Assembly (NCBI GenBank): GCA_003488965.1
Contig: DNJW01000083.1
Location: 22,870-34,539 of the forward strand
From: Lachnospiraceae bacterium
GTDB lineage: Bacteria > Bacillota > Clostridia > Lachnospirales > Lachnospiraceae
Direction of reading: 5' to 3'
Length of the DNA stretch: 11,670 bases
The notes under the pieces are model-generated. The model saw only the letters and a program-made list of their open reading frames with translations. It had not been told where the DNA came from and made no database searches. Made by a program: the position numbers and the translations under genes. This document shows, piece by piece, positions 1-11,576 of the stretch; within the stretch, counting starts at the first letter, position 1; each line of letters begins with the position of its first letter.

Positions 1-1047
1 ACGCCTGTCAATGACGACCATACGCCGGATTTGACGCCGGTAGAAGGAGCCAGCCGTCTGTTGGGACAGAATCTGGTAAAAGGCTCTGTGGTGGTTTTTG
101 AGTCTACCGTATATCCCGGCGTAACGGAGGATATCTGTGTGCCTATTCTGGAAGCGGAATCGGGACTGAAATGCGGGGTGGATTTTAAAATCGGTTATTC
201 GCCGGAAAGGATTAATCCGGGGGATAAAGTGCACAGGCTGGAGACGATTACGAAGATTGTATCCGGTATGGATGAAGAGACTTTGGACACTGTGGCAAAG
301 GTGTATGAGCTTGTGGTGGAGGCAGGGGTTTACCGTGCGGAATCCATTAAAGTGGCGGAAGCGGCGAAGGTAATTGAAAACAGTCAGAGAGATATCAATA
401 TTGCATTTATGAATGAACTGTCCATTATTTTCCATAAAATGGGAATTGATACGAAAGCAGTACTGGATGCGGCGGGAACAAAGTGGAATTTCTTAAAATT
501 TTCCCCGGGTCTGGTGGGCGGACACTGTATCGGCGTAGACCCTTATTATCTGACATATAAAGCGGAGGAACTGGGCTACCATTCCCAGATTATACTTTCG
601 GGAAGACGGATTAATGACGACATGGGCAGATATGTGGCGGAAAGCCTTGTAAAGAACCTGATTAAGAGCGACATTCCGGTAAAAGGGGCGAAAGTGGCTA
701 TCCTGGGCTTTACTTTTAAGGAGAACTGTCCGGATACAAGAAATACAAAAGTAATTGATATTTATAAGGAACTGGGAGAATACGGGATAAAGCCGGCAGT
801 GGTAGACCCGGCGGCGGATGCGGATGAAGCAAAAAGACTTTATGGAATTACTTTCTGCGATGTAAAAGAGATAAAGGATATGGACGCAGTAGTAGTGGCA
901 GTGGCGCATTCCCGTTTTTTGGAGCTGTCCAAAGAGGATATTGCAGCATTTTTCAATCCTCAGCATAAGGTAAAGGTGCTGATGGATATTAAGGGTTTGT
1001 TCGATAAGAAGGACTTTCAGGAAGATTATTTGTATTGGAGATTATAA
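1..1047 (+). CDS. UDP-N-acetylhexosamine 6-dehydrogenase (WbpA/WbpO/TviB family), 5' partial
   Basis: The NAD-dependent enzyme oxidises C6 of a UDP-HexNAc (UDP-GlcNAc or UDP-GalNAc) in two steps to the uronic acid. The frame is open from base 1, beginning TPVNDDHTPDL, which is the family's 'TP' segment after the Rossmann NAD domain, so roughly the first 80 residues lie upstream. The TTG at 31 is internal and is not a start. Visible marks are the STVYPGVTE segment, the YSPERINPGD segment, the central helix QRDINIAFMNE, and the catalytic motif GGHCIGVDPYY with Cys codon 526-528. The C-terminal NAD/UDP-binding domain follows (AILGFTFKENCPDTRN). These features favour the WbpO/TviB branch over UDP-glucose dehydrogenase. 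Its stop overlaps the next gene's ATG by one base, and its natural partner, the 4-epimerase, lies two genes downstream. The exact sugar (GlcNAc or GalNAc) cannot be read from the sequence. Confidence 0.93.
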   Translation, partial: TPVNDDHTPDLTPVEGASRLLGQNLVKGSVVVFESTVYPGVTEDICVPILEAESGLKCGVDFKIGYSPERINPGDKVHRLETITKIVSGMDEETLDTVAKVYELVVEAGVYRAESIKVAEAAKVIENSQRDINIAFMNELSIIFHKMGIDTKAVLDAAGTKWNFLKFSPGLVGGHCIGVDPYYLTYKAEELGYHSQIILSGRRINDDMGRYVAESLVKNLIKSDIPVKGAKVAILGFTFKENCPDTRNTKVIDIYKELGEYGIKPAVVDPAADADEAKRLYGITFCDVKEIKDMDAVVVAVAHSRFLELSKEDIAAFFNPQHKVKVLMDIKGLFDKKDFQEDYLYWRL

Positions 1048-2447
1048 TGACGAAAAAGGCAAGGTCGGGCGCGCTTCTCCTGCTGCTTTTGGCGGTATTT
1101 CTCGGAATGTTCGCCATTTTCGGTCCGGGGATATACAATGATTCGGATCAGTATTTAAAAATGCATATTCATCGGGAACCCTTATATCCGTTATTTTTAG
1201 CTGCTCTCAGGGGAATTTTTCAGGAGGGGTGGCTGATTGCCATGGGGATTATCCAGAATGTGTTTGCGGCAGTGAGCATATGGCTGTTTGCGGAGTATAT
1301 AAGCGAAAGGTTTGAACTGAGCTTATGGCAGGAAATCATGGTGATAGTGATTCACCTGATGCCCCATATGGTAACTAAGTACATTTCTTCCCTGCATCTT
1401 TTTATTACGAATTCGGTAATGAGCGAAGCCCTTTGCCTGCCGCTGTTTACCTTGTTTCTTCTGGAATGTTTTAAGATGTTTACCCAAAAGAAAGAAAAGG
1501 AGTTCTGGAAAGCGGCGGCGGCAGGACTTGTTTTTGCTTTTGTCATATCCCTTGCCAGAACACAGATGATAGTGACAATTCTTATATGGCTGGCAGTATT
1601 TGCTGCCAGAATCCTGTTATGGCCCAGGGAACGCTGGAGGCGCAGGACATGGCAGAAAGTCAGGGACGGAAAATGGAAGGCGGTTCGTCTGCTGACAGCC
1701 ACAGCTGTAGTTGCCGGTATATTTGCGGTACGGCTGTTGGCGGTGAAAAGCTATAATTTGGTATTTAACGGGCATTTTATCAATAATACTTATGGAACTG
1801 TCAATACGCTGACCAATATTCTTTACGCATCGGACAGAGAGGACGGCGTAAGGATTAGGGACGGGCAAGCCAGAGAGTTCTTTTATTATATGTATGATTT
1901 GACGGAGGAAAGGCAGGCAAATTACAAATATGCGGGCAGTTCCTTTACGGAAAAGGCGGAGCATATCGAAGCATGGCATGACACCATCAAATACGAGATG
2001 ATAGAGGACGTATTTTATCAGACCTATGATAAGACAGTGACCAGCGACTATATTATCCAGAACCTGATGGCGGATGAAACGGCGGGAAAAATTATCCGTG
2101 GGATTTTGCCGGCCTGTTTCTGGCGGTGGGCAGGAAACTATCTGCTGATTGCCGGCTATGGCCTAATCCGCAGCATTGCTGTAGTCCATCCGGTAATCAA
2201 TTGGATAGCGGTTCTTATCTATCTGTCCGCACTGGCGCTTACTGTGTTTGTTTACCGGAAAGAACCGGAGAGTCCGGCGGTTCCTGTTATGCTGATTTCC
2301 ATACTGGCGATATTGGCCAATGTGGGAGCCGTATCGGTGACCATTATGTGTCTGTCAAGATATATGATTTATGGATTTGCACCGTTCTATACGGGATATT
2401 TTCTGCTGCTGGCGGAGGGGAGGAGAAAGGTATGGGTACGAAGATAA
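1047..2447 (+). CDS. Multi-pass membrane protein, probable GT-C-type polyprenyl-phosphate glycosyltransferase
   Basis: This 466-residue protein has about nine or ten hydrophobic segments (about 9-25, 62-82, 95-115, 122-143, 157-192, 212-233, 355-378, 382-403, 411-434, 440-456). A large hydrophilic loop at about 236-355 is probably extracytoplasmic. The first loop carries an acidic motif, NDSDQY (31-36), followed by REPLYPLF, and a later helix starts with SEAL (126-129). This acidic first loop and multi-helix layout resemble GT-C enzymes (PMT/ArnT type), which transfer a sugar from a polyprenyl phosphate on the outer face. A Wzy-like role cannot be excluded. The ATG at 1047 was chosen because GGAG at 1037-1040 sits six bases upstream; the in-frame TTG at 1035 lies within that site. 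The start overlaps the dehydrogenase stop. It shares an RY-containing C-terminal segment (LSRYMIYGFAP) with the larger membrane protein at 7645. The exact family is not recognised. Confidence 0.8.
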   Translation: MTKKARSGALLLLLLAVFLGMFAIFGPGIYNDSDQYLKMHIHREPLYPLFLAALRGIFQEGWLIAMGIIQNVFAAVSIWLFAEYISERFELSLWQEIMVIVIHLMPHMVTKYISSLHLFITNSVMSEALCLPLFTLFLLECFKMFTQKKEKEFWKAAAAGLVFAFVISLARTQMIVTILIWLAVFAARILLWPRERWRRRTWQKVRDGKWKAVRLLTATAVVAGIFAVRLLAVKSYNLVFNGHFINNTYGTVNTLTNILYASDREDGVRIRDGQAREFFYYMYDLTEERQANYKYAGSSFTEKAEHIEAWHDTIKYEMIEDVFYQTYDKTVTSDYIIQNLMADETAGKIIRGILPACFWRWAGNYLLIAGYGLIRSIAVVHPVINWIAVLIYLSALALTVFVYRKEPESPAVPVMLISILAILANVGAVSVTIMCLSRYMIYGFAPFYTGYFLLLAEGRRKVWVRR

Positions 2448-2498
2448 AGGGTGTGACAGCTTAGAATTTTGCAATTGACTAATATATCTTTAAGGAAA

Positions 2499-2522
2499 GG
2501 AGATTTGCGTTTATGCGCAAAG
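2499..2522 (+). promoter_or_regulatory. Hairpin element between strong Shine-Dalgarno and epimerase start
   Basis: A strong ribosome site, AAGGAAAGGAG (2492-2502), is followed at once by a stem-loop. TTTGCG (2504-2509) pairs with CGCAAA (2516-2521), with a possible extra T-G wobble (2510/2515). An ATG of a nine-codon mini-ORF (MRKEKQHGI, stop 2540-2542) starts at 2513 within the loop, in a frame different from the epimerase. The real epimerase ATG at 2532 has no good site of its own. Either the hairpin folds to bring the Shine-Dalgarno near 2532, or ribosomes start on the mini-ORF and reinitiate. The element is closely similar to the one at 4483-4505. The pairing is seen; the regulatory role is inferred. 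Confidence 0.45.
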
Positions 2523-2531
2523 AAAAACAAC

Positions 2532-3506
2532 ATGGGATATAAAGAACTGAAATTTGATGAAAACAGCGTATTCTTAGTAACCGGCGGCGCCGGATTTATA
2601 GGCTCCAATCTTTGCGAAGCCCTTCTGTCCATGGGTTATACGGTCAGATGCCTGGATAATCTTTCCACCGGCAAGTATGAAAATATAGAACCTTTTACCA
2701 AGCTGGACAGGTTCACGTTTATCAAAGGAGATATCCGTGAACTGGATACTTGTATGGATGCCGTGAAGGGAGCGGATTATGTGCTGAGCCAGGCGGCATG
2801 GGGAAGTGTGCCCAGAAGCATAGAAATGCCGCTTTTATATGAAGAAATCAATATCAGGGGGACACTGAATATGATGGAGGCAAGCCGCCAGAATGGGGTG
2901 AAAAAGTTTGTATATGCTTCCAGTTCTTCTGTTTACGGGGACAATCCCCAGCTTCCCAAAAAGGAAGGAGTGGAAGGAAAAGTGCTGTCCCCTTATGCCC
3001 TGACGAAAAAGGTGGACGAGGAATACGGCAGACTGTATAAGGAGTTATACGGCTTGGACACTTATGGGCTGCGCTATTTTAATGTATTTGGCAGAAGGCA
3101 GGACCCGGACGGGGCATATGCCGCCGTGATTCCTAAGTTTATCAGGATGCTGATGAACGGAGAGGCGCCTACGATTAACGGCGACGGAAAGCAGTCCCGT
3201 GATTTTACGTATATTGATAATGTGATTGAGGCGAATTTAAAAGCATGTCTTGCCCCCGGCGAAGCAGCAGGAAATGCGTTCAATATCGGAGCAGGCGGCA
3301 GGGAATACCTGATTGACGTTTATTACGACCTTTGCAAGGCTCTGGGAAAAGAAATGGAGCCGGTTTTCGGACCGCCCCGGTTGGGAGATATCAGGGATTC
3401 CAACGCGGATATATCAAAAGCAAGGAAACTGTTGGGATATGACCCGGAATATGATTTTGCAGAGGGAATCCGTCTGGCAATTGACTGGTATAAGGAGAAT
3501 TTATGA
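2532..3506 (+). CDS. UDP-N-acetylglucosamine 4-epimerase, WbpP/TviC family (extended SDR)
   Basis: This NAD-dependent epimerase inverts C4 of a UDP-hexose derivative, here probably UDP-GlcNAc to UDP-GalNAc or the matching uronic acids. The 324-residue protein is normal length for the family. It shows the Rossmann motif TGGAGFIG (17-24), DNLSTG (42-47), the GSVPRSI segment (91-97) typical of WbpP-like enzymes, the catalytic serine region ASSSSVYG (129-136), YALTK with Tyr155/Lys159, and RYFNVFGRRQ (181-190). The ATG at 2532 was chosen because MGYKELKF is a usual N-terminus just before the Rossmann strand. The in-frame upstream frame (TTG at 2505, ATT-rich before it) would add unconserved residues, and that TTG is only two bases from the Shine-Dalgarno. 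It overlaps the formyltransferase gene by four bases. Together with the dehydrogenase it can supply UDP-GalNAcA. Confidence 0.93.
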   Translation: MGYKELKFDENSVFLVTGGAGFIGSNLCEALLSMGYTVRCLDNLSTGKYENIEPFTKLDRFTFIKGDIRELDTCMDAVKGADYVLSQAAWGSVPRSIEMPLLYEEINIRGTLNMMEASRQNGVKKFVYASSSSVYGDNPQLPKKEGVEGKVLSPYALTKKVDEEYGRLYKELYGLDTYGLRYFNVFGRRQDPDGAYAAVIPKFIRMLMNGEAPTINGDGKQSRDFTYIDNVIEANLKACLAPGEAAGNAFNIGAGGREYLIDVYYDLCKALGKEMEPVFGPPRLGDIRDSNADISKARKLLGYDPEYDFAEGIRLAIDWYKENL

Positions 3507-4435
3507 AATATAAAGTGGTAGTATTCGGGGTAAAAGATACCTCCGAAAATATTGTAGAATTTATTCATCAGAAAATATGTCCGGTAGATTTGGTGATTAC
3601 CATAAGCAAAGAGGTGCTGAATAAAAATCAGGTTTCCGGCTTTAAGGGTCTGTCGGTACTGACGGATAAATATGGGATTCCGGTTTTTGAAGCGGACAGC
3701 TACTTTCTGACCGATGACAAGACAAGAGTTTTTATGGAAAAAAATGAATTTGAGATTGCCGTTTCCATGGGCTGGCAAAGGCTGATTCCCAAATATGTAT
3801 TGGATAAATTTGAATATGGCGTATATGGGTTTCATGGAAATTGCGGATATCTTCCTTTCGGCAGGGGCAGATCGCCTCTTAACTGGTCGATTATTCAGGG
3901 GGATACCAGATTCAATCTGAATCTGTTCCGCTATGACGAAAAGGCGGACAGTCCGAATGTCTTTGCCACAGAGATGTTTGCCATTACATGTCATGACGAT
4001 ATAAGGACCGCCCAGTATAAAAATATGATTTGTTCCAAAAATCTTATCCGCAGGCTGCTGAAGGCTTATGAAACGGGAAATATTGTGATACGGACGGAGT
4101 CTAAGGATTTTGATTCCTGGTATACCAAGAGAACAGCGGCGGACGGCAAGATTGATTTCCATGCACGGACAAGGGATATTTATAATTTAATCCGGGGTGT
4201 GGCGGCACCTTTTCCCGGAGCGTTTGCCATGTGTATAAAAGGGGCTTCGCAAGAGAAAGTAACTATATGGGAGGCGCATCCCTTCGACGAGATAATAGAT
4301 TTTTCGGCTTATGCGCCGGGGGAGGTAGTGGATGTGTTTGACGGGAAGCCGGTAGTGCGCACCGTGGATGGTTCGCTGCTGATTGACAGATATGAATGCA
4401 GCTGTCAGATAGAAACGGGAGACATTCTGGAATAG
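3503..4435 (+). CDS. Formyltransferase family protein, ArnA-N-terminal-like; probable amino-sugar N-formyltransferase
   Basis: The 310-residue protein has a formyltransferase N-terminal domain (about 1-205) and a smaller C-terminal domain. It probably moves a formyl group from N10-formyl-tetrahydrofolate to the amine of a sugar. RGRSPLNW (121-128) is nearly the ArnA sequence RGRAPLNW, the downstream EKADS (146-150) supplies the conserved Asp149, and RTAADGKIDFH with IRGVAAPFPGAF (210-241) matches the hinge region of Fmt/ArnA. It is not the housekeeping methionyl-tRNA formyltransferase: it is embedded in a sugar operon and diverges at the active site. There, the usual N-x-H-G-S-L-L-P reads G-F-H111-G-N113-C-G-Y-L-P, with Gly at the catalytic Asn position and two extra residues before LP. 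AAGGAG (3492-3497) lies five bases before the ATG, which overlaps the epimerase stop. The substrate is unknown; a deacetylated aminouronic acid is a reasonable guess. Confidence 0.85.
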   Translation: MKYKVVVFGVKDTSENIVEFIHQKICPVDLVITISKEVLNKNQVSGFKGLSVLTDKYGIPVFEADSYFLTDDKTRVFMEKNEFEIAVSMGWQRLIPKYVLDKFEYGVYGFHGNCGYLPFGRGRSPLNWSIIQGDTRFNLNLFRYDEKADSPNVFATEMFAITCHDDIRTAQYKNMICSKNLIRRLLKAYETGNIVIRTESKDFDSWYTKRTAADGKIDFHARTRDIYNLIRGVAAPFPGAFAMCIKGASQEKVTIWEAHPFDEIIDFSAYAPGEVVDVFDGKPVVRTVDGSLLIDRYECSCQIETGDILE

Positions 4436-4455
4436 ACGGATACAGGAATGGTGAA

Positions 4456-4482
4456 AGATTGAAAATTAGAAATTTTCAATCT
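4456..4482 (+). repeat. Perfect 12-bp inverted repeat (stem-loop) before deacetylase
   Basis: AGATTGAAAATT (4456-4467) and AATTTTCAATCT (4471-4482) are exact reverse complements around a three-base AGA loop. The stem starts 20 bases after the formyltransferase stop. It is AT-rich and not followed by a T-run, so it is not a convincing intrinsic terminator. It could protect or process the mRNA, or be part of a dispersed repeat that also includes the next hairpin. Confidence 0.6.
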
Positions 4483-4525
4483 GGAGATTTGTGCTACGCA
4501 CAAAGTCTCCGGACTTTGAAAGGAG
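4483..4525 (+). promoter_or_regulatory. Overlapping alternative hairpins next to the deacetylase Shine-Dalgarno
   Basis: Fold one: GGAGA (4483-4487) pairs with TCTCC (4506-4510) and TTTGTGC (4488-4494) pairs with GCACAAA (4498-4504), with one bulged G at 4505. Fold two: CAAAGTC (4501-4507) pairs perfectly with GACTTTG (4512-4518) around a TCCG loop. The folds share 4501-4507, so they cannot both form. The deacetylase Shine-Dalgarno AAAGGAG (4519-4525) follows directly. CTCC at 4507-4510 could also pair with GGAG in that site. The layout suits a translational switch or a mobile palindromic repeat. The pairings are seen; the function is inferred. Confidence 0.5.
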
Positions 4526-4538
4526 CATAATTATAACG

Positions 4539-5294
4539 ATGAAAATAGCAGTCCGGATGGACGATATTACGCCGGAAATGGATTGGAAAAAATTTAATGA
4601 TTTTAAGGCTCTTCTGGATGAATATGGAATCAGGCCGCTGATAGGGGTAGTACCGGATAATCAGGATCCGCTGTTGAACAGAGGAAATGAAAATTATGAG
4701 CAAGAAAGCCGTCTTGTGCCGGCGGATTTCTGGGAATATGTGAGAAGACTGCAAAAGCAGGGATGGATCATTGCCATGCATGGATACCGGCATGTATATA
4801 CACAGAAAAAGGGGGGATTGTTCCCCCTGAATCATTTTTCGGAATTTGCCGGCCTGCCTTATTCCGTGCAGCTTGCCATGCTGGAAAAAGGGAAAAATAT
4901 TTTAAAATCCCACGGGATAGAAACAGATATTTTTATGGCACCGGCTCACTCTTATGACAAAAATACATTGAAAGCCCTGAAACAGACGGGATTTTCTAAG
5001 ATAACGGACGGATTTGGAACCGGTCCATATATCTGGAACGGAATGAGTTTTTATCCCATTTCCTTCCGGCTGGAAAACAGCCTGAAAAGAAAGAGCGGGA
5101 TGACTGCCATGGTGGTTCATGCCAATACAATGAGCGAAAAAGATATGGACAGATACCGCAGGATTTTCAAGGAAAAGGACATGATTTCCTACGGGGAATA
5201 TTTAAATGCAAAAGCAGTCAAAAGAGGAGCCATAGGGCGTGGCATGGAATATATGCTGGCATGGATAAAGTATATGCTGGTGAAGCTTTTGTAG
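4539..5294 (+). CDS. DUF2334-family polysaccharide deacetylase
   Basis: This 251-residue protein belongs to the metal-dependent carbohydrate esterase/deacetylase fold. It probably removes N-acetyl (or N-formyl) groups from an amino sugar in the cluster product. Motifs are RMDDI (6-10, metal Asp pair D8/D9), GVVPDNQDP (36-44), the zinc-type HGYRH (81-85), SEFAGLPY (101-108), MAPAHSYD (133-140) and VVHANTM (192-198), all in family order. There is no N-terminal signal peptide, so it likely acts in the cytoplasm. The last 20 residues form an amphipathic, hydrophobic helix that may touch the membrane. The ATG at 4539 is set by AAAGGAG at 4519-4525 (spacing 13, rather long) and by the usual N-terminus MKIAVRMDD. 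The frame extends upstream to 4491, but only through the hairpin region. It lies directly after the formyltransferase gene, suggesting linked acyl exchange on the same sugar. Confidence 0.88.
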   Translation: MKIAVRMDDITPEMDWKKFNDFKALLDEYGIRPLIGVVPDNQDPLLNRGNENYEQESRLVPADFWEYVRRLQKQGWIIAMHGYRHVYTQKKGGLFPLNHFSEFAGLPYSVQLAMLEKGKNILKSHGIETDIFMAPAHSYDKNTLKALKQTGFSKITDGFGTGPYIWNGMSFYPISFRLENSLKRKSGMTAMVVHANTMSEKDMDRYRRIFKEKDMISYGEYLNAKAVKRGAIGRGMEYMLAWIKYMLVKLL

Positions 5295-5329
5295 TGACTA
5301 ATAAAAAAGAAGTGAAAAGGAGAATTCCA

Positions 5330-6502
5330 GTGGGAAAACCAGTGCGTGTATTGCATGTGCTCGGCGGGCTTGGCCTGGGCGGGGCGGAAAGCCGTATTAT
5401 GGATTTGTACCGTTGTATGGACAGGGAAAAGGTGCAGTTTGATTTTCTCGTGCATCAGGACGGCGCCGGGCAAGGCCGGGAGCAGGAGCAGATGGTCCGC
5501 TGTCCCGAATTTTATGATGAAGAGGTGAAGTCCTTGGGCGGAAACATTTACCTTCTGCCTAAGTTTAAGGTATATAATTATTTTGCATATAAAAAAGCGG
5601 CCAGACGCTTTTTTAAAGAGCATTCCCGTTTCTGTGCGGTGCAGGGACATATGACAAGCACTGCGGCCATTTATCTGCCGGAGGCGGGAAAAGCGGGAAT
5701 CAGAATTCTGGCGGCTCATGCCAGAAGTGCAGGGGTGGATAAAGGAATTAAAGGAACCCTGACAAGAATATTGAGGATTCCTTTGCTGAGACGGGCGGAT
5801 TATTGTTTTGCCTGTTCGGAGGAAGCGGGCGAGTCCGTATTCGGGAAAAAATGGAAGAATTCGGCAAAAGCGAAGATAATTCCTAATGCGGTGGATGCGC
5901 AGAAATTTGTATATCAGGAAGACGTAAGGATAAAAACAAGAGAGGAACTGGGGATTTCCGATTGCTATGTGCTGGGGCATGTGGGCAGGTTTCATTATGC
6001 GAAAAACCATGAATTTTTATTGGAGATTTTCGCGGCTTTCCGGGACAGGATGAACCGGGAAGGAAAAAGAACGGTGCTTATGCTGTTAGGAGAGGGCGCG
6101 GGCATGGAAGCGTCAAAGCAGCAGGCACAGCGGCTGGATATCGATAAGGATATACTGTTTATGGGGAATCAAAAGGAGGTCTGGAAATATTATCAGGCTA
6201 TGGACTATTTTGTGTTTCCTTCCAGATTTGAAGGGCTGCCGGGTACCGTAGTGGAGGCACAGGCCGCCGGGCTTAGATGTATGATATCCGACCGGATTAC
6301 ACGGGAAGCGGGATTCAGCAGTCTGGTGCATTATGAGGATATTGCTCTTCCGGCCAGGGATTGGGCGGAATATATTATGAGAAACATGTTTTATGAGAGG
6401 AAAAACATGTGCCAGACGGTGAAGGATGCCGGTTTCGATGTGGGAGAACAGGCAAAAAGGATGGAGCGGTTCTATATGACAGGGGAATGGGAAAGCATCT
6501 GA
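5330..6502 (+). CDS. Glycosyltransferase family 4 (EpsF/CapM-like)
   Basis: This is a cytoplasmic retaining GT-B glycosyltransferase of about 390 residues that adds one sugar to the growing lipid-linked repeat unit. The N-terminal domain begins RVLHVLGGLGLGGAE (6-20), the acceptor-side glycine loop. The nucleotide-sugar domain has GHVGRFHYAKNHEFL (216-230), LLGEGAGM (252-259), and the EX7E motif from E301 to E309 in FEGLPGTVVEA. The GTG at 5330 is preferred over the in-frame ATG at 5261: AAAAGGAG (5315-5322) is seven bases before it, and 5261 would overlap the deacetylase by 34 bases and add a lysine-rich tail. A glutamine- and glycine-rich insert, GAGQGREQEQ (46-55), sits in the N-terminal domain. 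It lies 35 bases after the deacetylase gene. Donor and acceptor sugars are unknown. Confidence 0.92.
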   Translation: MGKPVRVLHVLGGLGLGGAESRIMDLYRCMDREKVQFDFLVHQDGAGQGREQEQMVRCPEFYDEEVKSLGGNIYLLPKFKVYNYFAYKKAARRFFKEHSRFCAVQGHMTSTAAIYLPEAGKAGIRILAAHARSAGVDKGIKGTLTRILRIPLLRRADYCFACSEEAGESVFGKKWKNSAKAKIIPNAVDAQKFVYQEDVRIKTREELGISDCYVLGHVGRFHYAKNHEFLLEIFAAFRDRMNREGKRTVLMLLGEGAGMEASKQQAQRLDIDKDILFMGNQKEVWKYYQAMDYFVFPSRFEGLPGTVVEAQAAGLRCMISDRITREAGFSSLVHYEDIALPARDWAEYIMRNMFYERKNMCQTVKDAGFDVGEQAKRMERFYMTGEWESI

Positions 6503-6523: not shown

Positions 6524-7642
6524 ATGAAAAAAAAGATTATGTTGATTGTTCCTATGCTTCACCAGGGCGGTTTTGAACGAGTCTGTGTGACGACGGCAAG
6601 GCTGCTGGAATCTTATTATGACGTATATATAGTGATGTTCGATTCCAAAGATATCGCCTATGATATTAAAGGGCTGAACGTAGTGGATTTGCATCTGGGT
6701 GTGAGAGAAGGAAAAATAGGAAAAATTCTGAATGTATTCAAAAGAAGTCTGGCAGTCAGAAGGCTGAAAAAGGAATGGAAAATTGACATTGCGTACAGCT
6801 TTGGACCGTCCGCCAATATGGTAAATGTTTTTTCGGGGACGGAGAGCCAGGTCTGGACAGGTATCCGCAGTTATATGGATATGGGCAATAAGCAATTGAT
6901 AAAGCTGTTTTCCAAAAGGGCGGACAAGCTTTTATGCTGTTCTAAAAGAATAGAGAAAGAGATTACAGAAAAGTACCATTGCCGGAAAGCGGTTACCTTA
7001 TATAATCCCTTGGATGTGGAAACGGTAAGGAAAAATGCGGTTTCGGAAGAGATAAGGCTGCCATGGGAGGAAGAAGGAAACATCATTGTATCCATGGGAC
7101 GGGAGGATGATGTGAAGGGCTTCTGGCATCTGCTCAAAAGTTTTTCCGTAGTAAGAAAAGAGATTCCCGATGTCCGGCTGATGATTATCGGGGACGGGGA
7201 ATTTGAAGAATACAAGGTATTGGCAGGCAGGCTGGGTATTGCCGCGGATGTCTATTTTACAGGAATGAAGAAGAATCCCTTTCCCTATCTAGGGAAGGGA
7301 AGGGTCTATGTATTGACCTCTTATAACGAGGGCTTTCCCAATGCCTTGATTGAGGCGATGGCGCTGGGAATTCCGGTTATTGCCACAGACTGTCTGACGG
7401 GACCGGGGGAAATACTGCGGAAGGAAGATAGGACTTACGGCATATTAATCCCTAATATGAGTCCAGAAAAGAACATGGATGCTTCCTGCATCAGCGGGGA
7501 AGAGATGGGGCTGGCGGATGAGATAAAAAGGATGCTTACGGACAAGGAATATTATGAGACTTATCAAAGGGCATCGGAAGAGCGGGCAAAGGATTTTTCA
7601 AATGAGCATTATGTAGAACGTATGATGCGATGGATTGGATAA
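6524..7642 (+). CDS. Glycosyltransferase family 4
   Basis: This is a 372-residue GT-B enzyme of the retaining GT4 group, most likely a cytoplasmic step in repeat-unit assembly. It begins KIMLIVPMLHQGGFERV (4-20), has a domain-linking NPLDVE region (161-166) and a nucleotide-sugar domain with VSMGREDDVKGFWHLL (189-204), IIGDGEFEEY (221-230) and the EX7E motif E269 to E277 in NEGFPNALIEAMALG. VIATDCLTGPGEIL (285-298) is the usual sequence after the motif. The ATG at 6524 follows a G-rich site (CGGGGGGAT, from 6511) and lies 21 bases after the previous stop. It is a different subgroup from the preceding GT4 and is closer in its EX7E region to the GT4 at 10464, suggesting a related donor. Specificity is not readable. 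Confidence 0.92.
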   Translation: MKKKIMLIVPMLHQGGFERVCVTTARLLESYYDVYIVMFDSKDIAYDIKGLNVVDLHLGVREGKIGKILNVFKRSLAVRRLKKEWKIDIAYSFGPSANMVNVFSGTESQVWTGIRSYMDMGNKQLIKLFSKRADKLLCCSKRIEKEITEKYHCRKAVTLYNPLDVETVRKNAVSEEIRLPWEEEGNIIVSMGREDDVKGFWHLLKSFSVVRKEIPDVRLMIIGDGEFEEYKVLAGRLGIAADVYFTGMKKNPFPYLGKGRVYVLTSYNEGFPNALIEAMALGIPVIATDCLTGPGEILRKEDRTYGILIPNMSPEKNMDASCISGEEMGLADEIKRMLTDKEYYETYQRASEERAKDFSNEHYVERMMRWIG

Positions 7643-7644
7643 AA

Positions 7645-9579
7645 ATGGATAAGATAAAGAACTGGAAAGAAGTTGCAAATAATAAGAAAGAGACAGAGGG
7701 AAAAACCGTGCTGGGGTATAAGGCAGGGAGTATTTTGTTTGCCTATTTTTCAGCTTCGGCGCTGACCACAAAACTGGATGTAGGGGATGTGGTGGAGGCA
7801 GGAATAGAAATCGGTTTTTATCAGAGGATTTACAAGCTGTTGGAGGTAATGGGACAGGGGCTGAGGGAAAGGGGGTTCCTGCTTTTTGTGCTGACGCTGC
7901 TGTTTCTGGCGCTATACTGGGATTTCTGGCTGATAAAAGGTACGGCTGCGGTGAAATACAGCAAGGGACTGTCCCTTTTCCTTGCAATTATGTACACGGC
8001 GGGAATGGGATTTGCGTATGGCGATACGCTGTCGGTGTTTACAACCTCTGCCATCCGGCTGCAGCGGGCAGAAGTGGCTGTCTGCGGTTTTTATGCGATT
8101 TATTTGACTATAATAAACATGATGTACTATTTTTTGAATTCGGGCTGGGATATCAGTCTGAGAGAAAACAGGATAATCAGGTTATATGATAAGAACCCCT
8201 TTTTATTCCAGTGGGCGGTTATTATGGGAATATGGCTGATTCATCTGATTCTGCGTTATCCGGGAATTATGTCTTATGATAATGCACAGCAGCTGGAATT
8301 CTATTTCGGATATGAAACTTTTACGACGGCACAGCCGATTTTTCATACGGTGCTGTTCGGATTTTTTGTCCAGCTGGGACTTTGGATGGGCAGCGCCAAT
8401 ATAGGGCTGTTTCTGTTTGTGGTGTTCCAGTCGCTGGTGATGTCCTGTATTCTGGCATACTCTTTAACTGTGATGGAAAAGTCAGGTATTCCGTGCTGGC
8501 TCAGGCTACTGTCTCTTGGCATCTATTGTTTTGTTCCGTATTATGCGGGATATGCTTCTTTTCCCATCAAGGATTATCTGTATACGGCATTTTTTGTGCT
8601 GCTTCTGCTGCTTTATATAGAATGGTTTCTGGACGGCGGAGACGCATGGACAAAAAAAAGAATCGGGGTCTGGACACTGGCGGGCTGTCTGGTGATTTTG
8701 CTCCGCAATAACGGAATCTATATTTACGTGCCGGTGGCGGTATATATAGCTGCGGCAGAACTGAAACATATCGGCAAAAAGGAAAAGCAGGAAAGAGGCA
8801 GGATGGCGGGAAAAGTGATTCTGGGGCTTATTCTGCCGCTGGCAACGGCATGGACCATGAATACGGCAGTTACCGTCTGCTGGAATGTGCAGAAGGATTC
8901 GCCCAAGGAAATGTTTTCCCTTCCTTTCCAGCAGACGGCAAGATATGTCCGGGATTATGGGAACGAGGTAACGGAAGAAGAGAGGGAGGCGATAAGTGCG
9001 GTTCTGGATTACGAAACGCTTCCTGATATCTATATGCCGATGACCGCCGACCCGGTAAAAACTACATATCATGCGGGCGGTACGGAGGAACTTGCGGCAT
9101 ATTTTAAGACATGGTTTGCCCAGTTTCTAAAGCACCCTTTCTGTTATGTGGAGGCTACATGGAACCAGAATTATTATATTTTTTCTCCTAATATTGACAA
9201 TATCGTATATAACAAGGACTGTACCGTGGCAGGAGACGATATGGAGGACAAGGGGATAAAGGAGCTGATTGAATTTAAGGTTCCGGAAAAAATGCACGGA
9301 TTATGTGCTATCATGGTCAGCTTCTATTCACTGCTGCACCGGCTTCCTGTGATAAATATATTAAGCAATGTGGCATTTTATATTATTTTGCTGTTTGTTT
9401 TTACATTCTATTTTTTAAGGGATAAACAGAATAAGGCTTTATGGGTGCTGATGCCGTTATGGCTGACGCTTTTGATTATTCTTGCATCCCCCCAGATACA
9501 GAATCAGCCCCGGTATGCATTTCCGATTATCTATTCCATGCCAAGTGTTGCGGCATTTTATTATAAGATAGGAAATTAA
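7645..9579 (+). CDS. Large multi-pass membrane protein, DUF6020-like, probable GT-C glycosyltransferase
   Basis: This protein of about 644 residues has ten or more hydrophobic segments (for example 27-42, 78-97, 108-125, 145-163, 187-203, 233-275, 286-300, 312-328, 342-370, 388-408, 570-590, 598-614) and a hydrophilic region at about 415-560, probably external. Recognisable stretches are RYPGIMSYDNAQQ (204-216), SFPIKDYLYT (305-314), RNNGIYIY (354-361) and QPRYAFPIIYSMP (621-633). They fit the DUF6020 group of Firmicutes membrane proteins, which I believe have a GT-C-like architecture; that name is from memory. The acidic residue D212 after the first external segment parallels the acidic loop in the membrane protein at 1047. 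The start is uncertain: ATG 7630 overlaps the previous gene, ATG 7645 has a weak GGAT two bases after that stop, and GTG 7708 has GAGGG upstream. The role is likely sugar transfer from polyprenyl phosphate, or polymer processing. Confidence 0.75.
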   Translation: MDKIKNWKEVANNKKETEGKTVLGYKAGSILFAYFSASALTTKLDVGDVVEAGIEIGFYQRIYKLLEVMGQGLRERGFLLFVLTLLFLALYWDFWLIKGTAAVKYSKGLSLFLAIMYTAGMGFAYGDTLSVFTTSAIRLQRAEVAVCGFYAIYLTIINMMYYFLNSGWDISLRENRIIRLYDKNPFLFQWAVIMGIWLIHLILRYPGIMSYDNAQQLEFYFGYETFTTAQPIFHTVLFGFFVQLGLWMGSANIGLFLFVVFQSLVMSCILAYSLTVMEKSGIPCWLRLLSLGIYCFVPYYAGYASFPIKDYLYTAFFVLLLLLYIEWFLDGGDAWTKKRIGVWTLAGCLVILLRNNGIYIYVPVAVYIAAAELKHIGKKEKQERGRMAGKVILGLILPLATAWTMNTAVTVCWNVQKDSPKEMFSLPFQQTARYVRDYGNEVTEEEREAISAVLDYETLPDIYMPMTADPVKTTYHAGGTEELAAYFKTWFAQFLKHPFCYVEATWNQNYYIFSPNIDNIVYNKDCTVAGDDMEDKGIKELIEFKVPEKMHGLCAIMVSFYSLLHRLPVINILSNVAFYIILLFVFTFYFLRDKQNKALWVLMPLWLTLLIILASPQIQNQPRYAFPIIYSMPSVAAFYYKIGN

Positions 9580-9664: not shown

Positions 9665-9717
9665 AGACTATAACCGTATGCAGGAAAATATGGGAAGATG
9701 CAAAAGGACGAATGAAA

Positions 9718-10467
9718 ATGAAAAAAACAATCATTGTAATGCCGGTGGCCAATGAAGAGTCTACGATGGGCAGGATTATAGAATCAATACTGGCATTGCC
9801 ATATGATAATTTGTACCTGTATCCGGTGATGGACAATTATTCCACGGACGGAACAAGGGCTGTTATAGAAGAGTACGAGAAAAAAACGGACAAGGTAAAA
9901 CTGATTTATTATAAGGAATCCTATGGAGTTATCAGCTGTTATCTGGAAGGCTTCCGTCATGCGCTGAAGGATGGGGCGGAGCGTATTATAGAGATGGACG
10001 GGGGAGGAAGCCATCTGCCGGAAGAAATTCCCCAGTTTATTGACAAGCTGGAGGAAGGCTATGACTGTGTCTGGGGTTCCCGTTTTGTGGAAGGCGGCGG
10101 TATCAGTAACCATCCTTTATATAGAAGGATATTGAGTTCCGGGGGAACGGTTCTGGCCAACATAGTGCTGGGAACAAAGCTGAAGGATATGACCAGCGGA
10201 TTTGAGGGTTTCCAAAGATATGTGCTGGAAAATCTGCGGCTGGATAAATTTTTGTCCACAGGGCATATGTATCAGACAGAAATGAGATATTACTGCAGAA
10301 ATTATAGAACCGTAGAAGTTCCGATTCATTATGTGGGTTCCAAATCCAGTTTCCGCTTCAAAGTCGTGGTGGAAGCGTTAAGAATACTATTCCAGCTGAA
10401 AGAGTCGGGAAAAAATATCCAGAAATGTCCTGAGGATAGGGCAGAGAAAATAGGAGTTTCGGAATGA
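9718..10467 (+). CDS. Glycosyltransferase family 2, DPM1-like polyprenyl-phosphate sugar synthase
   Basis: This is a 249-residue GT-A enzyme resembling the catalytic domain of dolichyl-phosphate mannosyltransferase, with no transmembrane tail. It would place a hexose or derivative on undecaprenyl phosphate at the inner membrane face. Motifs are IIVMPVANEE (5-14), the nucleotide-binding region MDNYSTDGTRAV (38-49), EMDGGGSH (92-99) where the usual DXD reads DGG, WGSRFVEGGG (119-128), MTSGFEGFQ (158-166) and a late basic strand. The ATG at 9718 has AAGGA nine bases upstream; the in-frame ATG at 9712 has only three bases of spacing and would add MK. The gene lies behind the candidate promoter and overlaps the next gene by four bases. 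Its product could feed the two GT-C-like membrane proteins. A plain transferase to a lipid-linked glycan is the alternative. Confidence 0.88.
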   Translation: MKKTIIVMPVANEESTMGRIIESILALPYDNLYLYPVMDNYSTDGTRAVIEEYEKKTDKVKLIYYKESYGVISCYLEGFRHALKDGAERIIEMDGGGSHLPEEIPQFIDKLEEGYDCVWGSRFVEGGGISNHPLYRRILSSGGTVLANIVLGTKLKDMTSGFEGFQRYVLENLRLDKFLSTGHMYQTEMRYYCRNYRTVEVPIHYVGSKSSFRFKVVVEALRILFQLKESGKNIQKCPEDRAEKIGVSE

Positions 10468-11576
10468 AACGTAAAATCGCATTTCATTTAAATTGTCTGG
10501 AGCAGGGTGGTGCGGAGAGGGTTGTGTCCAATCTGGCAAATCAGTTTTCCAGGGAGGGATACGAGGTTCTTCTGGCTACCGAGTGGTACGGGGAAAACGA
10601 GTTTGGGATTGAGGATGAGGTCCGGCGGGTGCATGTGGGGCTTAAGGAGAAGGATAAAAAGAAATCCCGTATTGCGCAGTTTCTGCTCAGGGTAAAATAT
10701 TTAAGGGAATTTATGAAAAGGGAGCGGCCGGATATCCTGATTGCGTTTGCCCAGAGAGCCAATTACCGGGCATTAATGGCGGCGCCCGGAACAAAGGTTC
10801 CGGTGCTTATATCTATTCGGACGGACCCTATAGGGCATTATGATGCTTTATCGGATAAAATACAAATTCCCGTTTTGTTTCCCAGGGCGGCGGGATGCGT
10901 ATTCCAGACGGAGGGACAGAGAGAATTTTTTGCCCCCTATCTTCAAAAAAATTCCAGAATTATATTGAATCCGATTCATGATAAATACATCGGCGTTCCG
11001 AGGCCGGAAAAAAGAAAAAAGGAAATCGTTCAATCCGGCAGGCTGGTGGACTTTAAAAATCAGCCCATGCTTTTGCAGGCATTTATTCAGGTACACAGAA
11101 AACACCCGGATTATATCCTGAAAATCTATGGCGGCGATTCCTTTGACGGTACAAAAGAAATCCTGGAATCCATCATCGCCCAAAACGATGCCGGGGATTA
11201 TATCAGGCTGATGGGTGCAAGCGACAGTCTGGAAAAGGATTTGAAGGATGCGGCGGTCTACGCTTTTTCTTCCGACTGGGAGGGGCTGCCTAACGCACTT
11301 TTGGAGGCCATGGCGCTGGGGCTGCCTATTGTGGCCACCGACTGTCCCTGCGGCGGTCCCCGTACGGTAATGGAGGACGGTGTGAGCGGGCTGCTGATAC
11401 CCATAAAAGACCCTAAGGCTTTGGAGGAAGGAATCAATAAACTGATTGAAAATCCGGCATTGGGGGAAGAACTTGGAAGAAACGCCAGAAAAATAGGAGA
11501 GATTGCAAACGGGGCAGCTATTTTTGAGCAATGGCGGGATTATATTGATGAGATATGCGGGAAAAAGAAACGATGA
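10464..11576 (+). CDS. Glycosyltransferase family 4
   Basis: This is a 370-residue retaining GT-B enzyme, probably cytoplasmic, of the broad group that includes GalNAc-transferring GT4 enzymes such as PglH/PglJ. The N-terminal domain starts KIAFHLNCLEQGGAERVV (4-21). The linker contains RIILNPI (165-171). The donor domain has SGRLVDFKNQPMLLQAF (191-207), the EX7E motif E273 to E281 in WEGLPNALLEAMALG, and the usual C-terminal ATDCPCGGPRTVMEDG (291-306). TAGGAG (10451-10456) lies seven bases before the ATG, and the start overlaps the GT2 stop (ATGA), showing coupling. It is the last gene in view; the next 94 bases hold only short palindromes. Specificity is unknown, but the HexNAc-uronate genes upstream make a GalNAc-type donor plausible. 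Confidence 0.93.
   Translation: MKRKIAFHLNCLEQGGAERVVSNLANQFSREGYEVLLATEWYGENEFGIEDEVRRVHVGLKEKDKKKSRIAQFLLRVKYLREFMKRERPDILIAFAQRANYRALMAAPGTKVPVLISIRTDPIGHYDALSDKIQIPVLFPRAAGCVFQTEGQREFFAPYLQKNSRIILNPIHDKYIGVPRPEKRKKEIVQSGRLVDFKNQPMLLQAFIQVHRKHPDYILKIYGGDSFDGTKEILESIIAQNDAGDYIRLMGASDSLEKDLKDAAVYAFSSDWEGLPNALLEAMALGLPIVATDCPCGGPRTVMEDGVSGLLIPIKDPKALEEGINKLIENPALGEELGRNARKIGEIANGAAIFEQWRDYIDEICGKKKR

What the first reader, a model, noticed from the sequence alone, without database searches (positions are those of the whole stretch)
1..5294. Possible N-formyl aminouronic acid cassette in a Gram-positive polysaccharide cluster
A WbpO/TviB dehydrogenase, WbpP/TviC epimerase, ArnA-like formyltransferase and DUF2334 deacetylase are encoded within 5.3 kb. 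The first two are known to make UDP-GalNAcA. A deacetylase exposes an amine and a formyltransferase can re-acylate it, which would give a 2-formamido-2-deoxy-galacturonic residue, a sugar reported in Pseudomonas aeruginosa O-antigens. An alternative is ArnA/ArnD-like logic, where the formyl group is a temporary blocking group. I am not aware of this four-gene set being described in gut Clostridia.
Basis: partly seen in the sequence, partly recalled or inferred. Interest (0 to 1): 0.72.

Follow-up and report, generated by a model that had tools for sequence, protein, structure and literature searches.

The report
Gut-bacterium sugar formylation gene module

Summary
The formyltransferase-DUF2334 pairing fails: DUF2334 is missing from 34 of 69 loci with enough flank and from 30 of 33 whole genomes behind loci lacking it, and occurs without the formyltransferase in 5 of 144 genomes.

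The constant partner starts 356 bases past the window: a protein without Pfam match (C239:34895-35641; 'CE4b') with a predicted CE4/NodB fold. In 150 genomes of the window's family, formyltransferase and CE4b occur in exactly the same six. GT4c (10464-11576) and an asparagine-synthase-type amidotransferase give the same six at 55% and 60% identity. In one genome all four are neighbours. Formylation of bacillosamine's 4-amine looks unlikely.

Best reading: CE4b frees an amine on a hexosamine or hexosaminuronate, the formyltransferase caps it, the amidotransferase amidates the acid. Caveat: the catalytic Asn is replaced in 205 of 205 orthologs, by Gly in 204, so formyl transfer itself is unproven.

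The parts
1..1047 (+). UDP-HexNAc 6-dehydrogenase, TviB/WbpO type (5' end outside the window)
   Evidence: PF00984, PF03720, PF03721; NF011729 TviB 424.7 bits, cut-off 592
2532..3506 (+). UDP-HexNAc(A) 4-epimerase, TviC/WbpP type
   Evidence: NF011728 289.5 bits, cut-off 760; WbpP 1sb8 E 6e-94
3503..4435 (+). ArnA-N/Fmt-fold formyltransferase-like protein with altered motif GxHxN (canonical NxHxS); start overlaps the epimerase stop
   Evidence: co-occurrence
4436..4538 (+). intergenic stretch with imperfect inverted repeat GGAGATTTGTGC-TAC-GCACAAAGTCTCC (4483-4510)
4539..5294 (+). DUF2334 (PF10096) CE4-like deacetylase; optional gene, not the formyltransferase's constant partner
   Evidence: 176.7 bits; absence and independent occurrence
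5294..6502 (+). GT4 glycosyltransferase (GT4a), next recognised gene after DUF2334 in 28 of 44 DUF2334 loci
6524..7642 (+). GT4 glycosyltransferase (GT4b)
7630..9579 (+). DUF6020 membrane protein, variable part of the cluster
   Evidence: 144.3 bits; close relative (50%) in 1 of 80 loci, more distant DUF6020-like hits (about 21-30%) in many
9712..10467 (+). GT2 polyprenyl-phosphate-sugar-synthase-like; variable, seen in 3 of 80 loci (flanks not always long enough)
10464..11576 (+). GT4 glycosyltransferase GT4c, member of the co-occurring module; followed outside the window by CE4b (G000:C239:34895-35641) and the AsnB-type amidotransferase (C239:35716-37599)
   Evidence: neighbours

Best explanation
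The formyltransferase-like gene is one member of a four-gene module: GT4c, CE4b, formyltransferase, AsnB-type amidotransferase. The module is embedded in a Lachnospiraceae surface-polysaccharide cluster with a bacillosamine-type reducing end (PglF, PglE, PglC). Most likely order: the TviB/WbpO and TviC/WbpP enzymes make UDP-GlcNAcA and UDP-GalNAcA; GT4c adds the hexosamine or hexosaminuronate to the growing lipid-linked oligosaccharide on the cytosolic face; CE4b removes the N-acetyl; the formyltransferase caps the amine with formyl from 10-formyl-THF; AsnB turns the carboxylate into the amide. The result would be an N-formyl hexosaminuronamide. DUF2334 belongs to another, optional step. Shown: gene content, co-occurrence, adjacency in one genome, predicted fold of CE4b, altered motif. 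Inferred: every catalytic step, substrate, order and product.
Against: The formyltransferase lacks the catalytic Asn in 205 of 205 orthologs (204 Gly, 1 Cys); a published comparison calls this Asn crucial in FMT, ArnA and GART, while the FDH hydrolase has Ile there (PMC4388273, passages). Sugar formyltransferases such as WbtJ act on nucleotide sugars whose amine comes from an aminotransferase (PMC10924466, passages); acting after a CE4 deacetylase would be unusual. CE4b has no Pfam or NCBIfam match, its first motif is RHDVE, and the three best Foldseek hits are a CE4 pseudoenzyme and its mutants. CE4b is not always close: seen in 21 of 63 loci with 9.5 kb downstream, and after GT4c in 19 of 33 loci with 4 kb of room. 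The epimerase is absent at E<=1e-80 from G072, so the sugar need not be GalNAcA. Other DegT-family aminotransferases exist in 8 of 8 genomes looked at. The six co-occurrence genomes are one family, so not independent; the AsnB and GT4c cut-offs were chosen after seeing the hits.
Confidence: 0.4

Rival explanations
1. Arn-like transient formylation: an aminotransferase-made amino sugar is formylated at the nucleotide level, transferred, and CE4b then removes the formyl (as ArnD does), leaving a free amine.
Against: L052 has no PglE-type aminotransferase in the locus (1 of 43 loci with PglF and PglC visible) and only 34% and 32% homologs in its genome, yet keeps the formyltransferase (81%) and CE4b (75%). 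The window's GT2 is in only 3 of 80 loci.
Confidence: 0.2
2. The protein has the formyltransferase fold but does not make a formamide: with Gly for Asn it hydrolyses 10-formyl-THF or passes the C1 or acyl unit to another nucleophile.
For: Asn replaced in 205 of 205 orthologs, His and Asp kept in 205 of 205; the genome's own Fmt keeps Asn. In the FDH hydrolase domain the position is Ile and changing it to Asn cuts activity to <10% (PMC4388273, passages).
Against: The ArnA-like stretch RGRxPLNW and the C-terminal domain are retained; the pairing with a CE4-fold protein fits amine chemistry.
Confidence: 0.2
3. The formyltransferase caps an aminotransferase-made 4-amino sugar (UDP-QuiNAc4N from PglF/PglE, or another one), as WbtJ does, and the formyl stays.
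For: PglF and a LegC/PglE-type aminotransferase lie upstream; classical chemistry; Qui4NFm made by WbtJ and the uronamide GalNAcAN co-exist in the Francisella O-antigen (PMC10924466, passages).
Against: An ATP-grasp enzyme is in 58 of 62 loci with PglC and the following GT4 visible (10 of them diverged, below 40% identity); in L051 and G072 a PglD/NeuD acetyltransferase above its curated cut-off sits there instead (175.3 and 200.1 vs 160.8 bits); L052 lacks the aminotransferase. What fills the place in L055 and L073 was not examined. This rival does not explain the constant CE4b.
Confidence: 0.12
4. One reading: DUF2334 deacetylates the uronate and the formyltransferase re-acylates it.
For: The two are neighbouring recognised genes in the window and in 40 of 44 DUF2334 loci; Fisher p 0.0019 in the 150 genomes (phylogeny ignored).
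Against: DUF2334 absent in 34 of 69 loci and 30 of 33 genomes; only 3 of 6 formyltransferase genomes have it, 5 others have it without formyltransferase; in L027, L035, L042, L059 it sits next to GT4a and away from the formyltransferase.
Confidence: 0.05

Closest known systems
ArnA N-terminal formyltransferase / sugar N-formyltransferases (WbtJ, VioF type)
   Same: ArnA chains are the best PDB matches (E 7e-25 to 4e-21); His111, Asp149 and RGRxPLNW kept.
   Different: Gly (204 of 205) for the catalytic Asn, Asn (203 of 205) for the Ser two after His, two-residue longer loop; partnered by CE4b, GT4c and AsnB rather than by a dedicated aminotransferase.
WbpO/WbpP and TviB/TviC, UDP-GalNAcA pathway
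   Same: Dehydrogenase and 4-epimerase best match these.
   Different: Scores are below the equivalog cut-offs; the epimerase is missing from one formyltransferase genome at E<=1e-80.
CE4/NodB deacetylases: PplD, IcaB, Bordetella WbmS, ArnD
   Same: Predicted fold of CE4b; conserved Asp and His residues.
   Different: No match to any Pfam or NCBIfam model and no confident PDB match by sequence; first motif RHDVE.
Arn lipid A modification (ArnA/B/C/D/T)
   Same: Formyltransferase, CE4-fold protein, ArnC-like GT2 and ArnT-like GT-C fold all occur in one cluster.
   Different: The co-occurring transferase is a GT4; the window's GT2 and GT-C genes are variable.
Bordetella wbm O-antigen locus
   Same: Predicted formyltransferase, aminotransferase and asparagine-synthase genes in one locus (PMC12243275, passages); WbmS (3hft) is among the fold matches of CE4b.
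   Different: No Bordetella sequence was compared here apart from the fold match.
P. aeruginosa O-antigens with 2-formamido-galacturonic residues (recalled, not from a call)
   Same: WbpO/WbpP plus an amidotransferase (recalled: WbpS) and N-formyl uronate.
   Different: No sequence of that locus was compared here.

Membership tests
10-formyl-THF amine formyltransferases (Fmt, ArnA, GART) | Formyl_trans domains | tested here: met
   PF02911 52.7 bits, over its cut-off; PF00551 24.8 bits, just under its cut-off of 26.1; best PDB relatives are ArnA
10-formyl-THF amine formyltransferases (Fmt, ArnA, GART) | catalytic Asn two before the His | tested here: not met
   Gly in 204 of 205, Cys in 1; role of the Asn from PMC4388273 passages
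10-formyl-THF amine formyltransferases (Fmt, ArnA, GART) | catalytic His and Asp | tested here: met
   His111 and Asp149 in 205 of 205
10-formyl-THF amine formyltransferases (Fmt, ArnA, GART) | formyl transfer to an amine | not testable with these tools
   needs enzyme assay
UDP-GalNAcA pathway (WbpO/WbpP, TviB/TviC) | both enzymes encoded and best-matching these families | tested here: met
   scores below equivalog cut-offs
UDP-GalNAcA pathway (WbpO/WbpP, TviB/TviC) | epimerase present wherever the formyltransferase is | tested here: not met
   missing in G072 at E<=1e-80; otherwise 71 of 72 loci
CE4/NodB fold (CE4b) | NodB fold | tested here: met
CE4/NodB fold (CE4b) | metal-binding Asp/His/His and general base | tested here: inconclusive
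   R47 H48 D49 V50 E51, H106, H143, H213 invariant in 41 sequences; geometry not inspected
DUF2334 as partner of the formyltransferase | co-occurrence | tested here: not met
Arn-type pathway | ArnB-type aminotransferase feeding the formyltransferase | tested here: inconclusive
   ortholog of the cluster's DegT absent in L052's genome, distant DegT homologs present
GT-C glycosyltransferases (1047-2447) | GT-C fold | tested here: met

The most novel reading that the evidence does not exclude
A formyltransferase-fold enzyme with a rebuilt active-site motif (GxHxN instead of NxHxS) and a constant, probably cytosolic CE4-fold partner carry out an acetamide-to-formamide exchange on a lipid-linked hexosaminuronate in Lachnospiraceae: N-formyl sugar formation without a nucleotide-sugar aminotransferase.
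Probability: 0.3. Interest if true: 0.68.

Novelty: new variant of a known kind. Interest (0 to 1): 0.52.

Why it matters
N-formyl sugars are described in Gram-negative O-antigens, and the routes I recall make the amine with an aminotransferase. A gene module in gut Lachnospiraceae that would make the amine by deacetylation and cap it with formyl would be a second route. It would also give a function to an unannotated CE4-fold family and test whether a formyltransferase works without its catalytic Asn. The co-occurrence makes the substrate question testable: the four proteins have no strongly hydrophobic 19-residue segment, so they should be expressible together.

Tried and rejected
DUF2334 as constant partner: rejected. 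4-amino-bacillosamine as formyl acceptor: judged unlikely. Fmt paralogy: G000's second hit (C262) is a normal Fmt with NxH, so the window gene is not the housekeeping copy. In the 150-genome search the other listed hits are at most 30% identical; I read them as Fmt-like from that and did not inspect them one by one, and the match list was cut. Relatives elsewhere in the phylum: none at E<=1e-30 (formyltransferase) or E<=1e-25 (CE4b) in 397 other genomes sampled.

Sequence search of CE4b in the PDB gave nothing usable, hence the fold model. The DUF2334 search of the PDB gave only chance matches. Paper searches: 26 found none, 27 (DUF2334) one paper, unrelated by its listing, 45 (WbmS) unrelated papers, and 29, 30, 46, 55, 57, 79 showed no listed title or abstract on this module; the lists were capped (for example 12 of 208 papers, 12 of 41) and the library holds open-licence papers only. 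Passages of PMC7725333 held nothing of use. VIA does not separate deacetylase from deformylase: PplD, IcaB, WbmS and ArnD are within 1 Z. The hairpin in the gap 4436-4538 was not found elsewhere in the held loci except one arm in L007.

Weak points: the ORF caller is greedy and drops some real genes; gene counts therefore come from tblastn. The 80 loci are the best 80 of 178 relatives. Of the 80, 72 were used for upstream counts, 69 for DUF2334 and 63 for downstream counts, by flank length. In one search, 33 of the 36 loci without DUF2334 (80 minus the 44) were searched, 50 of the 80. Contig identity was judged by coordinates and strand only; the 8 not placed downstream are L019, L033, L038, L040, L057, L066, L070, L084. 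The tool counts one stop in G072's GT4c; one search has an open frame of 365 aa over the same place, so I take it as the terminal stop. Fisher values ignore phylogeny and include the window's own genome. The 205 orthologs are not all from different organisms.
Full report

SURROUNDINGS. Upstream on the same contig lie PglF (4,6-dehydratase), a LegC/PglE-type aminotransferase, a PglC-type initiating transferase, a PylC-like ATP-grasp enzyme and a GT4. Downstream of GT4c, starting 356 bases past the window's end, lie a 249-aa protein with no Pfam or NCBIfam match (C239:34895-35641, here CE4b) and an asparagine-synthase-type amidotransferase (C239:35716-37599). So this is a slice of a large surface-polysaccharide cluster.

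CONSERVATION. The formyltransferase found 178 relatives in GTDB species genomes, of which the best 80 were kept; 68 of the 80 are titled Lachnospiraceae. The order PglF, DegT, PglC, ATP-grasp, GT4, ugd, (GT-C), epimerase, formyltransferase, GT4a, GT4b recurs. Of 72 loci with at least 5 kb upstream, 70 show ugd, 71 the epimerase and 60 the GT-C gene. DUF2334 is absent from 34 of 69 loci with 3 kb on both sides. In 33 genomes whose locus lacks it, PF10096 was found in 3.

THE CONSTANT PARTNER. Over one sample of 150 genomes of the window's family (149 others at >=90% completeness plus the window's own, each a different genus) I compared presence gene by gene. Formyltransferase orthologs (66-100% identity; other listed hits at most 30%) are in six: G000, G002, G032, G049, G072, G090. 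CE4b (60-100%) is in exactly those six and none of the other 144. GT4c at >=55% and AsnB at >=60% are again those six; lower hits exist (GT4c 44, 44, 41 and 39%; AsnB 59 and 55%), and these cut-offs were set after seeing the hits. The epimerase is in 15 genomes, five of the six (not G072) and ten others. DUF2334 is in eight, three of the six and five others. Fisher values without correction for phylogeny: CE4b 7e-11, epimerase 3e-5, DUF2334 2e-3. In 50 genomes picked because they carry the formyltransferase (one of them, L049's, is G049 again), CE4b is present in 50 of 50 at >=69% identity, and by coordinates lies 3.5-24 kb downstream on the same strand in 42. It is not always near: within the 9.5 kb or more held downstream it is seen in 21 of 63 loci, and after GT4c in 19 of 33 loci with 4 kb of room. 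In the phylum-wide sample of 398 both genes appear only in the window's own genome. In G072 AsnB, formyltransferase (inverted), CE4b and GT4c are neighbours; in G032 formyltransferase and CE4b are on different contigs. G083 has the same type of cluster with neither formyltransferase nor CE4b, and there the GT4c relative is only 44% identical.

THE ODD ACTIVE SITE. Aligned to the genome's own Fmt and to ArnA, the residue two before the catalytic His is Gly in 204 of 205 orthologs and Cys in one; His111 and Asp149 are kept in 205 of 205; the Ser two after the His is Asn in 203 and Ser in 2. PMC4388273 (passages read) states that this Asn is crucial for catalysis in FMT, ArnA and GART, that the FDH hydrolase domain has Ile instead, and that Ile-to-Asn drops its activity to <10%. 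PMC6802093 (passages) names His, Ser and Asp as the conserved triad. So the window protein fails one tested defining feature of amine formyltransferases, and N-formyl transfer is an assumption.

WHICH AMINE. The obvious rival acceptor is the 4-amino group made by PglF and the aminotransferase. Three observations speak against it. (a) In 58 of 62 loci with PglC and the following GT4 visible an ATP-grasp enzyme is present, in 10 of them a diverged one below 40% identity. (b) In L051 and in G072 a PglD/NeuD acetyltransferase above its curated cut-off sits there instead. (c) L052, 1 of 43 loci with PglF and PglC visible, has no aminotransferase there and its genome only 34% and 32% homologs. The formyltransferase is kept in all of them; CE4b was seen in G072 and L052 and was not looked for in L051's genome. 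Other aminotransferases exist in these genomes, so an amine from elsewhere is not excluded.

MECHANISM. I favour exchange: CE4b de-N-acetylates a hexosamine or hexosaminuronate placed by GT4c, the formyltransferase caps the amine, AsnB amidates the carboxylate. The Arn-like alternative, in which CE4b removes a transient formyl, uses more classical steps and is not excluded. DUF2334's next recognised gene is GT4a in 28 of 44 loci, and in four of these the formyltransferase lies elsewhere, so it probably serves another sugar; against that, the formyltransferase is a neighbouring recognised gene in 40 of 44 loci.

KNOWN VERSUS NEW. Each enzyme type is known. The Francisella O-antigen, for example, combines Qui4NFm (made by aminotransferase WbtI, then formyltransferase WbtJ) with GalNAcAN (PMC10924466, passages), and Bordetella wbm loci hold predicted formyltransferase, aminotransferase and asparagine-synthase genes (PMC12243275, passages). 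The P. aeruginosa comparison rests on recall. I saw no paper on this module in the capped listings of ten searches of an open-licence library. I class it as a new variant of a known kind; the co-occurrence result is firm, the chemistry open.

Noticed in passing
window 1047-2447: A 466-aa protein without Pfam match has a GT-C fold and is found in 60 of 72 loci with 5 kb upstream, mostly between dehydrogenase and epimerase, yet diverges fast (median 44% identity).
   Followed up: partly
L051:3701-4348, L101:7153-7836, L019:2578-3591, L052:4210-5073: The genes around PglC swap between ATP-grasp, PglD-type acetyltransferase, a PALP enzyme plus ATP-grasp, or an SDR: the reducing-end sugar appears to vary in modules.
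   Followed up: partly
L040:2761-4392: A diverged ATP-grasp enzyme fused to a HAD-type hydrolase domain replaces the usual ATP-grasp.
   Followed up: no
L022:9102-9878: A metallo-beta-lactamase-fold protein sits directly before the formyltransferase.
   Followed up: no
window 4483-4510: Imperfect inverted repeat between formyltransferase and DUF2334; one arm recurs in L007 at 14853, also near DUF2334.
   Followed up: partly
L030:9064-9981, L022:8204-9124: A GT10-like (fucosyltransferase family) gene lies after the epimerase in these relatives (29.2 bits over the cut-off in L030, 23.1 just under it in L022); unclassified genes of similar length occupy that place in other loci.
   Followed up: no
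L005:4818-5975 and L005:6140-8023: A protein without Pfam match and, by eye, a second asparagine-synthase-like gene follow the module.
   Followed up: no
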